NCBI RefSeq assembly: GCF_021919125.1
Contig: NZ_CP083439.1
Location: forward strand, 62,001 to 126,000
DNA: 64,000 nucleotides
Source of the DNA: Clavibacter sp. A6099
GTDB lineage: Bacteria; Actinomycetota; Actinomycetes; Actinomycetales; Microbacteriaceae
Reading direction: 5' to 3'
The first letter of the stretch is position 1, and each line of letters begins with the position of its first letter. The notes under the pieces are model-generated. The model was not told the origin of the DNA. It did not search any database and saw only the letters and a program-made list of their open reading frames with translations. Shown here piece after piece: positions 17,238-61,680 of this stretch. Both the position numbers and the translations under genes were made by a program.

Positions 17238-17313
17238 CCCCGTCTCGGCCCTCCGGCCCCCCGGCCGGGGCACACCGCCTGCGCGGGGGCGGTCCGCGAC
17301 CCGTGGATCCTGT

Positions 17314-17338
17314 GAGTTGAGCCGACATCGCTCAACTC
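17314..17338 (+). promoter_or_regulatory. distal HAIR operator of the dnaK operon
   Basis: A 9-bp inverted repeat GAGTTGAGC / GCTCAACTC with a 7-base spacer. It keeps the TTGAG-N9-CTCAA core of the HAIR consensus bound by HspR. Confidence 0.75.
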
Positions 17339-17351
17339 CTGCCGCCGCGAC

Positions 17352-17398
17352 TTGACGCTCGGCGAGGTCCGGGTAGAGTTGAGTCATCGCGGCTCAAG
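17352..17398 (+). promoter_or_regulatory. dnaK operon promoter with proximal HAIR operator
   Basis: TTGACG (17352-17357), a 16-base spacer and TAGAGT (17374-17379) form the promoter. GTTGAGT-N7-GCTCAAG (17378-17398) is a HAIR site covering the -10 end and the start point, so HspR would block RNA polymerase directly. HspR itself is the fourth gene of the operon, giving the known negative feedback loop. Confidence 0.85.
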
Positions 17399-17511
17399 TA
17401 GCACGCCGCTGACGAAGCGGCACCGCGAGACAGACTCCGCGGGACACCCGCGTCACCACACGAAGCGACCCCGTGATCCGGGGCCTCGCGGCAACAGAAG
17501 GAGAACACCCC

Positions 17512-19379
<1,868 letters not shown>

Positions 19380-30780: not shown

Positions 30781-32937
30781 ATGACCGCTCCCGTCCGCAC
30801 CGCGCCCCCGTCGGCCGACGCGCCTCCCGCGTCCGCCGCCGCGGCGTCGATCCCGGACCCCGCCCCGTCGCTCGCCGCGGTCACGCGCGCCGACGGGGCC
30901 GGCCGGATCCCGGTGCGGGCGGTCGCGGTCGTCGCCCTCCTCGCGCTGGTCGTGGCGGTGCTCGCGGTGATCGACGTCACCCAGGGCACCGCCGCGGTCG
31001 GCCCGCGCGAGGTGTGGCAGGCGCTCACCGGGCGCGCGACGCCGGGCGACGCATCCGTCGTGGTCGCGTCGCGGCTGCCGCGCATGGCCGCGGGGATCCT
31101 CGTGGGCCTCGCCCTCGGGGCGGCCGGCGCCGCCCTGCAGACGGTGAGCCGCAACGTGCTCGCCTCGCCCGACACGCTCGCCGTGAACGCGGGCGCCTAC
31201 GCGGCGCTCGCCGTCGCGGCGGTCACCGGGCTCACGCTGCCGGTGCTCGCGGGTGCGGGCGTCGCGTTCGTCGGCGGGCTCGTCGCGGCGGCCATCGTGC
31301 TCGCGGTCTCGGGCCTCGGATCCGGCACCGTGCGCCTCGTGCTCGCGGGCAGCGCGCTCGCGCTGGGCCTCGGATCCGTGACCAGCGCGCTCCTCCTCCT
31401 CTTCCCGCAGCAGACCTCCGGCCTCTACCGCTGGGGCCAGGGCGGCATCGGCCAGAACGGCTTCGACGCGGTCGCGCAGATGGCGCCCGTCGTGGTCGTC
31501 GCGCTCGGGATCCTGCTCCTCATCACCCGCCGGCTCGACGCGCTCGGGCTCGGCGACGACGCCGCCCGCAGCCTCGGCGTCGACGTGCGTGCGACCCGCG
31601 TGATCGCCGTGCTCGCCTCGGTGCTGCTCGCCGCCGCCGCCGTGACGGTCGCCGGGCCCATCGGCTTCGTGGGCCTCTACGCGCCCGCGTTCGTGCGGCC
31701 GCTGCGCCGGCTCGTGCCGGGCGTGCGCCGCTCGTGGGTCTTCGTCCCCATCGCCGGCCTCATGGGCGCGGCCGTCGTGCTGCTCGCCGACGTGCTGCTG
31801 CGCGCGGTCGTCGGCGCCGAGGCGTCGGTCGCGGTGCCGACCGGGCTCGTCACCTCCCTCATCGGCGCGATCGTGCTCGTCGTGCTGGCCGTGCGCACCC
31901 GCGACAGCGCGACGCCCGCGCCCACCGAGCGCCACGGCGTGATCACCCGCCGGCGCGCCGCGCTCGTGGTCGGCGCGCTGGTGCTCGTCCTGGTTGGCCT
32001 GCTCCTCGCGTCCGTGCTCCTCGGCGACGCGAAGCTGCTCCTCGGCGACCTCGTCAACGGGATCCGCGGCACCGCCGGCCCCGTCGTCAGCTACGTGCTC
32101 GACACCCGCGTGCCCCGCGTGCTCGCCGCCGTGCTCGCGGGCGCGGCGCTCGCGCTCGCCGGCGTGCTCGTGCAGGCCGTGACCCGCAACCCGCTCGCAG
32201 ATCCCGCGATCCTCGGCGTCTCGGGCGGCGCGGGCCTCGGCGCCGTGCTGTTCGTGACGACCGCGCCGCTCGCGTCGGGCTGGGGCATCGCCGGCGCGGC
32301 CGGGCTGGGGGCGCTCGCCGCGGCGGTCGTCGTCTTCGGCCTCGCGGCGCGCGGCGGCTTCCCGCAGAACCGGCTGGTGCTCATCGGCGTCGGCGTCTCG
32401 GCGGGCACGGCGGCGGCTATCAGCATGATCATCGTGCTCACGGACCCGTTCAACGGCGCGAAGGCGCTCACCTGGCTCTCCGGATCCACCTACGGCCGCG
32501 GCTTCGACGACGCCCTGCCGGTGCTCGCCGCCCTCGTGCTCGCGGTGGCGGTCGCGGCCCCGCGCCACAGGATGCTGGATCTGGTGGCCCTCGACGACGA
32601 CACCCCGCGCCTGCTCGGCGTCTCGCTCGGCCGCTCGCGCCTGCTCGCCCTCTCGATCGCGGTGGTGCTCACGGCGACGGCGGTCGCCGCGGTCGGCGTG
32701 ATCGGCTTCGTCGGCCTGGTCGCGCCGCACGCCGCCCGCGCGCTCGTCGGATCCCGCCACGTGCGCGTCGTGCCCGTCGCGATCCTGCTGGGCGCCGCCC
32801 TCGTGACCCTCGCCGACCTGCTCGGCCGCACCGTGATCGCCCCCGGCCAGCTCGGCGCCGGCCTCGTGACCGCGCTCGTCGGCACGCCGTACTTCGTGTG
32901 GCTGCTGTGGCGCGGGCGGGCGTCGCGCGGGCGGTAG
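30781..32937 (+). CDS. iron-siderophore ABC transporter, fused double permease (FhuB-like)
   Basis: A 718-residue protein that joins two FecCD-type permeases in one chain, as in FhuB. The first half spans about residues 45-370, the second 385-718. Each has the conserved block for ATPase contact: GDDAARSLGVDVRATR and DDTPRLLGVSLGRSR, and each the GPIGFVGL / GVIGFVGLVAPH motif. About 18-20 membrane helices. The last 118 bases (32820-32937) recur at 34391-34522, on the far side of the cassette that follows. Confidence 0.93.
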   Translation: MTAPVRTAPPSADAPPASAAAASIPDPAPSLAAVTRADGAGRIPVRAVAVVALLALVVAVLAVIDVTQGTAAVGPREVWQALTGRATPGDASVVVASRLPRMAAGILVGLALGAAGAALQTVSRNVLASPDTLAVNAGAYAALAVAAVTGLTLPVLAGAGVAFVGGLVAAAIVLAVSGLGSGTVRLVLAGSALALGLGSVTSALLLLFPQQTSGLYRWGQGGIGQNGFDAVAQMAPVVVVALGILLLITRRLDALGLGDDAARSLGVDVRATRVIAVLASVLLAAAAVTVAGPIGFVGLYAPAFVRPLRRLVPGVRRSWVFVPIAGLMGAAVVLLADVLLRAVVGAEASVAVPTGLVTSLIGAIVLVVLAVRTRDSATPAPTERHGVITRRRAALVVGALVLVLVGLLLASVLLGDAKLLLGDLVNGIRGTAGPVVSYVLDTRVPRVLAAVLAGAALALAGVLVQAVTRNPLADPAILGVSGGAGLGAVLFVTTAPLASGWGIAGAAGLGALAAAVVVFGLAARGGFPQNRLVLIGVGVSAGTAAAISMIIVLTDPFNGAKALTWLSGSTYGRGFDDALPVLAALVLAVAVAAPRHRMLDLVALDDDTPRLLGVSLGRSRLLALSIAVVLTATAVAAVGVIGFVGLVAPHAARALVGSRHVRVVPVAILLGAALVTLADLLGRTVIAPGQLGAGLVTALVGTPYFVWLLWRGRASRGR
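32820..32937 (+). repeat. direct repeat, copy A (3' end of the permease gene)
   Basis: This is the intact end of the permease gene. It shares 72 identical bases (32851-32922) and a nearly identical border with copy B at 34391-34522. The pair flanks the 1453-base cassette at 32938-34390. Confidence 0.9.
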
Positions 32938-33004
32938 CGGGGCGATCGTGGCACGGCCGACCTCGAGGTTGTGGAAGGACACGTCACGGCGGCTGGGGAT
33001 GACC

Positions 33005-33010
33005 TAGCTT
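33005..33010 (+). promoter_or_regulatory. possible -10 box of the MauE/Cys-rich cassette
   Basis: TAGCTT, about 50 bases before the first gene of the cassette. No convincing -35 box is seen. Confidence 0.3.
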
Positions 33011-33059
33011 CTCGTGCGCGGGCCTCTTCGCCTACCTCGCCCGTGTTGTGGGGACGCTC

Positions 33060-33545
33060 ATGCTGGGGACGCTGCTGGTCATCGCCCGCATGTGCGCAGG
33101 TGGATTCTTCGTCTGGACGGGCAGCGCGAAACTGAGCCGGTCTCGACACTTCTGGTCTCAGATCATGGGTTACAAGATCGTCGGACCGCGTCAAGCCAGG
33201 TTCCTCGCCGCAACGCTGCCTCCCGTCGAGTTCGTCGCCGGCTTGTTCTTCGCCGCTGGGCTATGGCCCGCCGGGACGGGGTGCGTCCTGCTCCTGCTGC
33301 TCGCCGCATTCACTGTCGCCATCGCATCCTCTCTGCTCCGTGGCCTCGAGAACGATTGCGGCTGCGCGGGAAGCGGTCGCGTCTCACCGATCCTCATCGT
33401 CCGCAATGTCATTCTCGCTTCGCTGGCGGTGGCTGGAATGTCATCCGCGGCGCCGGAGTATTCCGGCGAGATCATCCTCGTGACATGCGGGTGCCTCCTT
33501 GTCGTCGCAATCAGCTCCCATTCGTATCGTGCAATCGGAAGATGA
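33060..33545 (+). CDS. MauE/DoxX-like membrane redox protein
   Basis: A 161-residue membrane protein with four hydrophobic helices (about 1-20, 48-70, 73-95, 112-132) and a fifth short one near 140-152. The cytoplasmic/extracellular loop carries DCGC (Cys100, Cys102), the CGC motif typical of the MauE family, whose members help form disulfides in secreted cysteine-rich proteins. A second pair, TCGC, is near the end. ATG at 33060 follows GGGGAC; GTG at 33048 is the alternative. It lies 27 bases before the gene for a 13-cysteine exported protein, so a role in folding that protein is very likely, though inferred. Confidence 0.72.
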   Translation: MLGTLLVIARMCAGGFFVWTGSAKLSRSRHFWSQIMGYKIVGPRQARFLAATLPPVEFVAGLFFAAGLWPAGTGCVLLLLLAAFTVAIASSLLRGLENDCGCAGSGRVSPILIVRNVILASLAVAGMSSAAPEYSGEIILVTCGCLLVVAISSHSYRAIGR

Positions 33546-33572
33546 TCACCATTCAGATCGAAAGGTATTCGC

Positions 33573-34259
33573 ATGTCGACTCGACGCAGCATCTTGAGGG
33601 GCCTCATCGGGGCAGCGGCGCTCACGGCAACCGGACAGGTCCGATCATTCGCGGCGTCCGCCTCACCGGTTTCGGCGTCACCCATCCGTGAGTCAGACCA
33701 TCCCTGGTACCTGCAGCCGCTCGCGGCGACTGCCACGGCAGGTGCCGATGACCTGACGGTCCTCCATCGGGCGGCAACAGCGGCGGCGATACAGGAGGGG
33801 TATGCGCCGGACGTGGTGGCCTCGGCGGTATCGCAGGCCACCGTGTCGGTCAACACTCGCGGCAACAGGGTTGGCAAGTGCTCCCTGATCTTGGACGCGC
33901 ACGCCGTGTTCGTGCTGACGAAGGAGTTCGGAACGGGGCATCTGAATCGCCAGGCGGTGCAGACGCTCTGGGCCGGCGCAGACGATATCGTCCGAGACCT
34001 CGTACCGGCGGCTCACGCCAAGATGATGGCCTCCGGTGAATCGGGCAGCATAGAGGCGGCGGACGCGGCTTCGAGCTGCTGCACCGTCCTCGGCAACGCG
34101 ATCGGCACGTGTTGCCGATATGACTTCCAAGGGCTGTTCGAATGCTGCGGACCCTGTGCGTTCACCTTCCCCGAGATCCCGGTCTTCATAGCCTGCGTCG
34201 CCGTATGGTGCAATTACTGCTCGGCCGCGCACTGCAAGGAGTGGTACTACGAGTGTTGA
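33573..34259 (+). CDS. Tat-exported cysteine-rich protein, bacteriocin precursor-like
   Basis: A 228-residue protein I cannot match to a named gene with certainty. It starts STRRSILRG followed by a hydrophobic stretch and AASA, a twin-arginine (Tat) signal. Residues about 31-165 form a mostly helical domain with one cysteine (Cys103). Residues 169-228 contain 12 cysteines (169, 170, 180, 181, 191, 192, 195, 208, 213, 216, 221, 228), enough for six disulfides. This arrangement, a Tat signal, a middle domain and a compact Cys module, recalls the halocin C8 precursor, where the middle part is the immunity protein. It uses ATA (three times) and TAT codons, unlike its neighbours. GAAAGG precedes the ATG. 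Confidence 0.7.
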   Translation: MSTRRSILRGLIGAAALTATGQVRSFAASASPVSASPIRESDHPWYLQPLAATATAGADDLTVLHRAATAAAIQEGYAPDVVASAVSQATVSVNTRGNRVGKCSLILDAHAVFVLTKEFGTGHLNRQAVQTLWAGADDIVRDLVPAAHAKMMASGESGSIEAADAASSCCTVLGNAIGTCCRYDFQGLFECCGPCAFTFPEIPVFIACVAVWCNYCSAAHCKEWYYEC

Positions 34260-34354
34260 TGCGTCCAAGGTGAGGTGCTCCCCGCGGTCGATCACGCCGA
34301 TTTCCCGGAATGCGTGCTGAGCTGGATGAGTAGGCACCCCGTCCGCCTCACGCG

Positions 34355-34377
34355 GAGCCGGTGCGCCGCGCCGGCTC
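34355..34377 (+). terminator. hairpin after the cysteine-rich gene
   Basis: GAGCCGG / CCGGCTC, a 7-bp stem with a 9-base loop, 95 bases after the stop and just before repeat copy B. Confidence 0.45.
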
Positions 34378-34390
34378 GATCTCTCGACCC

Positions 34391-34522
34391 GCTCGGCCGC
34401 ACCGTGAACGCCCCGGCCAGATCGCCCCGGGCCAGCTCGGCGCCGGCCTCGTGACCGCGCTCGTCGGCACGCCGTACTTCGTGTGGCTGCTGTGGCGCGG
34501 GCGGGCGGCTCGCGGGCGGTAG
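34391..34522 (+). repeat. direct repeat, copy B (orphan fragment of the permease 3' end)
   Basis: A second copy of the end of the permease gene, including its in-frame stop (…WLLWRGRAARGR). 34436-34507 is identical to 32851-32922. Copy B carries 14 extra bases from an imperfect tandem duplication (ACGCCCCGGCCAG followed by ATCGCCCCGGGCCAG), which breaks the frame. It has no upstream gene and is a remnant. The remaining 34260-34657 holds no gene; 34523-34657 is the promoter region of the acyltransferase. Confidence 0.9.
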
Positions 34523-61620: not shown

Positions 61621-61650
61621 TACTTCTATTAGTACTAAAGTTAATAACCA
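61621..61650 (+). promoter_or_regulatory. AT-rich palindrome upstream of the Fic gene
   Basis: TTAGTACTAA (61629-61638) is a perfect palindrome inside the most AT-rich patch of the area. It lies 43 bases before the GTG at 61681, so it is a candidate operator for the winged helix of that Fic protein. Confidence 0.5.
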
Positions 61651-61680
61651 CGACGAGGGGGAGACGGAAGGGGGCCGCAG

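What the first reader, a model, noticed from the sequence alone, without database searches (positions are those of the whole stretch)
32938..34390. A low-GC cassette with a MauE-like redox protein and a 12-cysteine Tat-exported peptide
Two co-oriented genes stand alone between copies of a permease end: a CGC-loop membrane redox protein and a twin-arginine protein with 12 cysteines in its last 60 residues. The pair looks like a self-contained disulfide-peptide system, possibly a bacteriocin. The line 33541-33600 is 50% GC by my count against about 70% or more around it, and the peptide gene uses three ATA codons, so it was probably acquired. I do not recall this pair being described.
Basis: partly seen in the sequence, partly recalled or inferred. 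Interest (0 to 1): 0.88.

Follow-up and report, generated by a model that had tools for sequence, protein, structure and literature searches.

The report
Two-gene secreted cysteine-rich peptide system
A small foreign-looking pair of genes in some Clavibacter plant bacteria probably makes and exports a heavily disulfide-bonded peptide, perhaps an antibiotic against related bacteria, together with its own membrane protein that helps form the bonds.

Summary
Between two copies of a fecCD permease end lies a 1.45-kb cassette, lowest in GC of the window (0.646; mean 0.738). It encodes a MauE protein (PF07291) and a 228-residue twin-arginine protein with 12 cysteines in its last 60 residues.

Both genes lie adjacent at the same site in 4 of 18 genomes of the genus (Clavibacter); the other 14 show no DNA match to the cassette. 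One of the four Tat genes has an in-frame stop. The Cys domain is under purifying selection (dN/dS 0.02-0.04). A diverged version (25% identity, 10 cysteines kept) follows a MauE gene on Curtobacterium plasmid pS16, with a possible immunity gene behind it. No Pfam, NCBIfam or PDB match above cut-off; halocin C8 and fulvocin C models fail.

Best reading: a Tat-exported precursor of a 5-6-disulfide peptide with a dedicated MauE-type redox partner, probably antibacterial. Activity is not shown. MauE beside precursors with at least 8 cysteines is in print as candidate RiPP clusters of Streptomyces, so this is a new variant of a predicted kind.

The parts
30781..32937 (+). fecCD-type double permease gene; its 3' end is the insertion site
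   Evidence: PF01032 E 2.3e-149; its end is found in 18 of 18 genus genomes
32821..32836 (+). left copy of the 16-base direct repeat, inside fecCD
32938..33047 (+). leader between the fecCD stop and MauE; 86-87% identical in the three other carriers
33048..33545 (+). MauE-family membrane protein, 165 aa, with CGC loop motif (C104-G-C106); an ATG at 33060 is an alternative start
   Evidence: PF07291 E 1.3e-22; CGC shared with the Curtobacterium homologue
33573..34259 (+). Tat-signal precursor protein, 228 aa, 13 Cys
   Evidence: dN/dS 0.12 and 0.14 over the whole gene against G005 and G013
33573..33662 (+). twin-arginine signal (MSTRRSILRG..., then hydrophobic stretch and AxA-like site); read by eye, cleavage point inferred
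   Evidence: sequence; RR aligned with the Curtobacterium homologue
33663..34073 (+). pro region, about 137 aa (WYLQ motif shared with Curtobacterium; one Cys, C103)
34074..34256 (+). Cys-rich domain, residues 168-228, 12 Cys; 10 of them align with the 10 Cys of the Curtobacterium protein
   Evidence: dN/dS 0.024 and 0.044
34392..34407 (+). right copy of the 16-base direct repeat; present at the right end in 4 of 4 carriers
34420..34522 (+). second copy of the fecCD 3' end, 100 of 103 identical; among the four carriers seen only in the window genome
34658..35788 (+). flanking acyltransferase (not part of the system); directly follows fecCD at the empty site of G008
   Evidence: PF01757 E 1e-33

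Best explanation
The cassette is a minimal two-gene system for a secreted disulfide-rich peptide. The larger gene encodes a precursor exported by the Tat pathway. Its C-terminal domain of about 60 residues carries 12 cysteines and is held by five to six disulfides on the outer side of the membrane. The MauE protein is the dedicated membrane redox partner: its CGC loop passes electrons from the peptide thiols to the membrane, as MauE is thought to do for the small subunit of methylamine dehydrogenase. The pro region of about 137 residues keeps the domain soluble or inactive until a protease frees it. The mature peptide most likely acts against related bacteria. Shown here: the pair, its linkage in two genera, its patchy presence as an insertion, selection on the Cys domain, homology over full length. 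Inferred: Tat export, disulfides, the MauE role, processing. Inferred with less support: antibacterial activity.
For: MauE profile match. Twin-arginine start, pro region and 12-Cys domain. Adjacent in 4 of 4 Clavibacter carriers, no DNA match to the cassette in the other 14 of 18 genomes. Same gene order on Curtobacterium plasmid pS16 with full-length homology: pairwise BLASTP E 5e-9; 0 of 1000 shuffles reach the score, z 16.9. The 10 Cys of the Curtobacterium domain align with Cys here. Cys domain dN/dS 0.024 and 0.044 against 0.13-0.14 in the pro region, window against G005 and G013, two intact copies that are nearly alike and so not independent. A small protein with two hydrophobic stretches (by eye) overlaps the end of the Curtobacterium gene, as an immunity gene could. 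Plasmid location, patchy presence and low GC fit an accessory weapon. MauE beside precursors with at least 8 Cys was proposed as RiPP clusters (PMC7794033, passages). Clavibacter bacteriocins are reported to act mostly on other species of the genus (passages of PMC11748494), and inhibition zones are reported among such strains (passages of PMC12628682).
Against: No activity, peptide or disulfide data. No bacteriocin model matches. The window's Cys domain is acidic (net -3), the Curtobacterium one basic (+4). No immunity, protease or transporter gene is seen in the Clavibacter cassette. With cysteines masked the similarity of the Cys domains is barely above chance (41 of 1000 shuffles reach it), and that of the pro region alone is modest (5 of 1000). 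The MauE tree does not resolve, so it does not group the Clavibacter and Curtobacterium MauE proteins. Of 103 other MauE matches in the class sample, 89 loci were scanned and none showed such a partner. No twin-arginine model of Pfam or NCBIfam rang for the window protein. pS16 is typed non-mobilizable. The structure prediction was uninformative (mean pLDDT 32.4).
Confidence: 0.5

Rival explanations
1. The Cys-rich protein is secreted toward the plant: a small cysteine-rich protein that works in the apoplast. MauE again makes its disulfides.
For: Clavibacter and many Curtobacterium live in or on plants (recalled). Purifying selection on the Cys domain fits a conserved target. No immunity gene seen in the Clavibacter cassette.
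Against: Present in only 4 of 18 genus genomes, with an in-frame stop in one of them. The Curtobacterium copy is on a large plasmid with a candidate immunity gene. No match above cut-off to a known family.
Confidence: 0.2
2. A secreted redox or cofactor protein, like a shrunken relative of the methylamine dehydrogenase small subunit, which also has MauE as maturation partner.
For: MauE match; twin-arginine start; 12 Cys, the number I recall for the disulfides of that subunit.
Against: No Pfam family at E up to 1 for the whole protein. No other mau gene in the cassette; other mau genes were not searched for in the rest of the genome, apart from MauE itself, which has one match there at E up to 1e-6.
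Confidence: 0.12
3. The pair makes a non-antibacterial surface or signalling peptide, and the variable presence only reflects a hotspot.
For: The DNA behind fecCD differs between genomes, with another low-GC insert in G011.
Against: Small size, heavy cysteine content, plasmid carriage and a MauE partner seem to me more typical of secreted peptide weapons (judgement, not a test).
Confidence: 0.13

Closest known systems
MauE-containing candidate RiPP clusters of Streptomyces (decRiPPter, PMC7794033)
   Same: A MauE homologue in a cluster with a gene for a precursor of at least 8 Cys (passages).
   Different: Here there are only two genes, and the precursor is a 228-aa twin-arginine protein with a long pro region. 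The paper's intergenic training ORFs were 30-300 nt, so I infer that its precursors are short.
Methylamine dehydrogenase small subunit MauA with MauE/MauD
   Same: A MauE protein serving an exported multi-disulfide protein; six disulfides and a twin-arginine leader in MauA are recalled.
   Different: No Pfam match; no other mau gene in the cassette; cysteines packed in the last 60 residues behind a pro region.
Halocin C8 and halocin C8-like bacteriocins (TIGR04449)
   Same: Tat precursor with a long N-terminal part and a C-terminal Cys-rich peptide with 10 Cys (recalled).
   Different: The model does not match this gene; Cys spacing differs (recalled); I recall no MauE partner for halocin C8.
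Fulvocin C-related proteins (NF033852)
   Same: C-terminal Cys-rich bacteriocin-like domain (recalled).
   Different: No match in the genome up to E 10, nor from NCBIfam on pieces of the protein.

Membership tests
MauE (PF07291) | Profile match above the curated cut-off | tested here: met
   80.9 bits against 27, residues 8-131 of 165; Curtobacterium partner 84.9 bits
MauE (PF07291) | CGC cysteine pair in a loop (recalled as typical) | tested here: met
   C104-G-C106, shared with the Curtobacterium homologue
MauE (PF07291) | Role in disulfide formation of an exported partner | not testable with these tools
   Needs gene removal and mass spectrometry
Methylamine dehydrogenase small subunit | Sequence match to a Pfam model of the family | tested here: not met
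   No Pfam family at E up to 1 for the Tat protein
Halocin C8-like bacteriocin (TIGR04449) | Profile match above the curated cut-off (24 bits) | tested here: not met
   No match at this gene up to E 10 in the own genome; none from NCBIfam on the domain alone
Fulvocin C-related (NF033852) | Profile match above the curated cut-off (35 bits) | tested here: not met
   No match up to E 10 in the own genome
Tat substrate | Twin arginine, hydrophobic segment, cleavage site | tested here: inconclusive
   Visible in the sequence and in the homologue. The homologue hits a TAT-target model below its cut-off (TIGR02811, E 0.0015, 18.8 of 48.45 bits). No TAT model rings for the window protein
MauE/Cys-rich candidate RiPP clusters (decRiPPter) | MauE homologue beside a precursor with at least 8 Cys | tested here: met
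   12 Cys in the domain here, 10 in Curtobacterium
MauE/Cys-rich candidate RiPP clusters (decRiPPter) | Precursor homologous to the Streptomyces ones | not tested
Bacteriocin | Inhibits related bacteria; producer immune | not testable with these tools
   Only a candidate immunity gene in Curtobacterium (L167:6177-6422)

The most novel reading that the evidence does not exclude
The pair is the founding example of a new family of Tat-exported, 5-6-disulfide bacteriocins of Microbacteriaceae. Each is encoded with its own MauE-type oxidase, so that two genes suffice to make, oxidise and export the weapon. It spreads on plasmids and by insertion at the fecCD end.
Probability: 0.4. Interest if true: 0.68.

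Novelty: new variant of a known kind. Interest (0 to 1): 0.52.

Why it matters
MauE homologues are common in actinobacteria (103 of 296 sampled genomes of the class at E up to 1e-6), and what most of them serve is unknown to me. A two-gene unit with an obvious multi-cysteine client gives a clean test of what MauE does. If the peptide is antibacterial, it adds a family to the little-characterised bacteriocins by which Clavibacter and Curtobacterium compete, and a compact module for making disulfide-rich peptides.

Tried and rejected
Halocin C8 and fulvocin C membership: tested, no match. Methylamine dehydrogenase small subunit: no Pfam match. Weak NCBIfam matches to two enzyme models (E 0.015-0.07, 12-14 bits against cut-offs of 528 and 223) were set aside. 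Plasmids and phages with the whole window protein: no match. The C-terminal 72 residues at a lax limit led to three plasmids. The first, Curtobacterium (E 0.2), was accepted because a MauE gene lies next to it and the full-length proteins align; the other two (E 2 and 9) were not pursued. Plasmid searches with the Curtobacterium proteins found only that record.

Wider searches for the Tat protein found no convincing relative outside Clavibacter: family 398 genomes (7 weak matches, not inspected one by one), class 394 (5 weak, likewise), phylum 396 with the Cys domain (27 weak, of which one search printed the two most Cys-rich frames for 24 loci), family 269 with the three-sequence profile (16 genomes with weak matches, not inspected), order 198 (1 weak, not inspected). 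These sets overlap. Viral contigs: 171 stretches matched a pattern, none a relative. The single scan of named genomes returned one place, Clavibacter sp. VKM Ac-2872.

Neighbour search: of 103 MauE matches other than the window's own, 89 loci were scanned (29 with 1.5 kb, 60 with up to 2.5 kb on each side) and 14 were not fetched. 14 ORFs passed the cysteine filter; none has RR in its first 30 residues, and by eye they look like shadow frames. MauE genes on two other plasmids have neighbours whose annotation names no Cys-rich protein; their ORFs were not scanned. MauE tree: unresolved, long branches. Structure: mean pLDDT 32.4, so no fold search was made; the second structure job was not used. 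PDB: no relative by sequence. Promoter and terminator scan: none found.

Literature: searches found no paper; one search found 113 with 'MauE' (begin of word) and bacteriocin, of which 20 were listed and none looked relevant by title; one search found one (PMC7794033); one search found 17, none relevant by title; some searches gave background listings only, apart from the passages read.

Full report
What is there. The window is G000:C1:62001-126000 of a 3.33-Mb genome. The genus is Clavibacter: one same-genus genome (G013) has a contig of the same length, 2,167,218 bases, as the named record Clavibacter sp. VKM Ac-2872. The species of the window is not known. Behind the stop of a fecCD-type permease gene (30781-32937) lie a MauE gene (33048-33545; PF07291 E 1.3e-22) and, after a gap of 27 bases, a 228-aa gene (33573-34259) without any Pfam or NCBIfam match above cut-off. 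That protein starts with a twin arginine and a hydrophobic stretch, continues with a region of about 137 residues, and ends in a domain with 12 cysteines.

Is it more than chance. The cassette is lower in GC than 626 of 626 sampled windows of its length in the 64 kb (0.646; mean 0.738, sd 0.024), and GC3 of its genes is 0.75 and 0.79 against 0.97-0.98 next door. The Cys stretch is the densest in the window. The gene is under selection: between the window and G005 or G013, dN/dS is 0.024 and 0.044 in the Cys domain, 0.132 and 0.142 in the pro region, 0.27 and 0.23 in MauE. G005 and G013 are nearly alike, so these are not independent. The signal region alone shows a ratio of about 1 on few changes. 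The G003 copy was left out because it has an in-frame stop.

Distribution. In the genus the protein is in 4 of 18 genomes. A DNA search with the whole locus finds the fecCD end in 18 of 18, and the cassette behind it in the same 4 of 18. The other 14 show no DNA match to either cassette gene at E up to 1e-10; a diverged MauE elsewhere in those genomes was not sought with the protein. The DNA behind fecCD differs among the 14, so the place is a hotspot. G008 is a clear empty site: fecCD is followed directly by the acyltransferase that lies behind the cassette in the window (95.9% identical). In G003, G005 and G013 the cassette is followed instead by a gene that I read by eye as a sensor kinase; no profile was run on it.

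How it sits. A 16-base word of the fecCD interior recurs at the right end of the cassette in 4 of 4 carriers, and in the window the last 103 bases of fecCD follow once more. I read this as insertion or transfer by recombination using fecCD homology, with the window genome having received the cassette into an acyltransferase background. This is inference; no ORF of integrase size lies in the cassette beside the two genes (by eye).

The same pair elsewhere. A lax search with the Cys domain led to Curtobacterium sp. MCSS17_016 plasmid pS16 (E 0.2; 546 kb, typed non-mobilizable). There a MauE gene is followed, with overlap, by a 246-aa protein with a twin-arginine start, the WYLQ motif and 10 C-terminal cysteines. 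It aligns over its full length (BLASTP pairwise E 5e-9; 0 of 1000 shuffles), and its 10 cysteines fall on cysteines of the window protein. The evidence by parts is uneven: Cys domain z 9.9, N-terminal part z 6.3, pro region without signal z 3.9 (5 of 1000 shuffles reach it), Cys domain with cysteines masked z 2.1 (41 of 1000). The linked MauE (34% over 108 residues) makes common descent of the pair much more likely than cysteine content alone would. A third Curtobacterium gene, overlapping the second, codes for an 81-aa protein with two hydrophobic stretches. I see no counterpart in the Clavibacter cassette.

What it is not, as far as tested. The halocin C8 model and the fulvocin C model do not match; no Pfam family matches the Tat protein; PHROGs gives only an E of 0.22; PDB gives nothing by sequence. 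AlphaFold2 with two sequences gave mean pLDDT 32.4 and says nothing.

How it most likely works. MauE is speculated to help make the disulfides of the methylamine dehydrogenase beta subunit (stated in PMC7794033, passages read, citing van der Palen 1997, which I did not read). That subunit has six disulfides and a twin-arginine leader (recalled). The present pair copies that logic: a twin-arginine export signal, a domain with an even number of cysteines (10 or 12), and a MauE partner. The product is then a secreted disulfide-rich peptide or protein. That it is antibacterial rests on context: patchy presence, plasmid carriage, a pro region, a possible immunity gene in one genus, and bacteriocin rivalry reported for Clavibacter (passages in PMC11748494 and PMC12628682). 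A bacteriocin of another type from Clavibacter, CmmAMP-I, is known to me from memory only; the library holds no paper with that name, so I could not compare it.

What is in print. Searches for MauE with halocin C8, bacteriocin, disulfide, cysteine-rich and Clavibacter gave one relevant paper, PMC7794033; of the 113 papers only 20 were listed. It reports three candidate RiPP families in Streptomyces with a MauE homologue and a precursor of at least 8 cysteines. I found no description of this Clavibacter/Curtobacterium pair in these searches, and the library holds only openly licensed papers.

Limits. Only two diverged versions are known, so the family profile is weak. The genome searches were samples. 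The synonymous divergence of the Tat gene (0.37-0.41) is about three times that of MauE (0.13-0.14) between the same genomes, which I cannot explain; it may mean separate recombination of the two genes.

Noticed in passing
L062 (G011), directly after the fecCD stop: A different low-GC insert (GC 0.635 over 1 kb) sits at the same site, with a hydrophobic ORF and no significant similarity to the cassette; the fecCD end is an insertion hotspot.
   Followed up: partly
L002 (G003): The Tat gene copy of G003 has an in-frame stop while its MauE frame is open; copies without a stop exist in the three other carriers.
   Followed up: partly
window 33048-34259: Synonymous divergence of the Tat gene is about three times that of the adjacent MauE gene between the same genomes.
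   Followed up: no
L048 (G000:C1:1538059-1538202): A sub-threshold halocin C8-domain match (14.4 bits, E 0.23) elsewhere in the same genome, far outside the window.
   Followed up: no
L167:6177-6422: An 81-aa hydrophobic protein overlaps the end of the Curtobacterium Cys-rich gene; candidate immunity protein with only sub-threshold family matches.
   Followed up: partly
window 17301-19250 and 61621-61680: The next-lowest GC stretch of the window, and the only other 60-base line at 50% GC.
   Followed up: no
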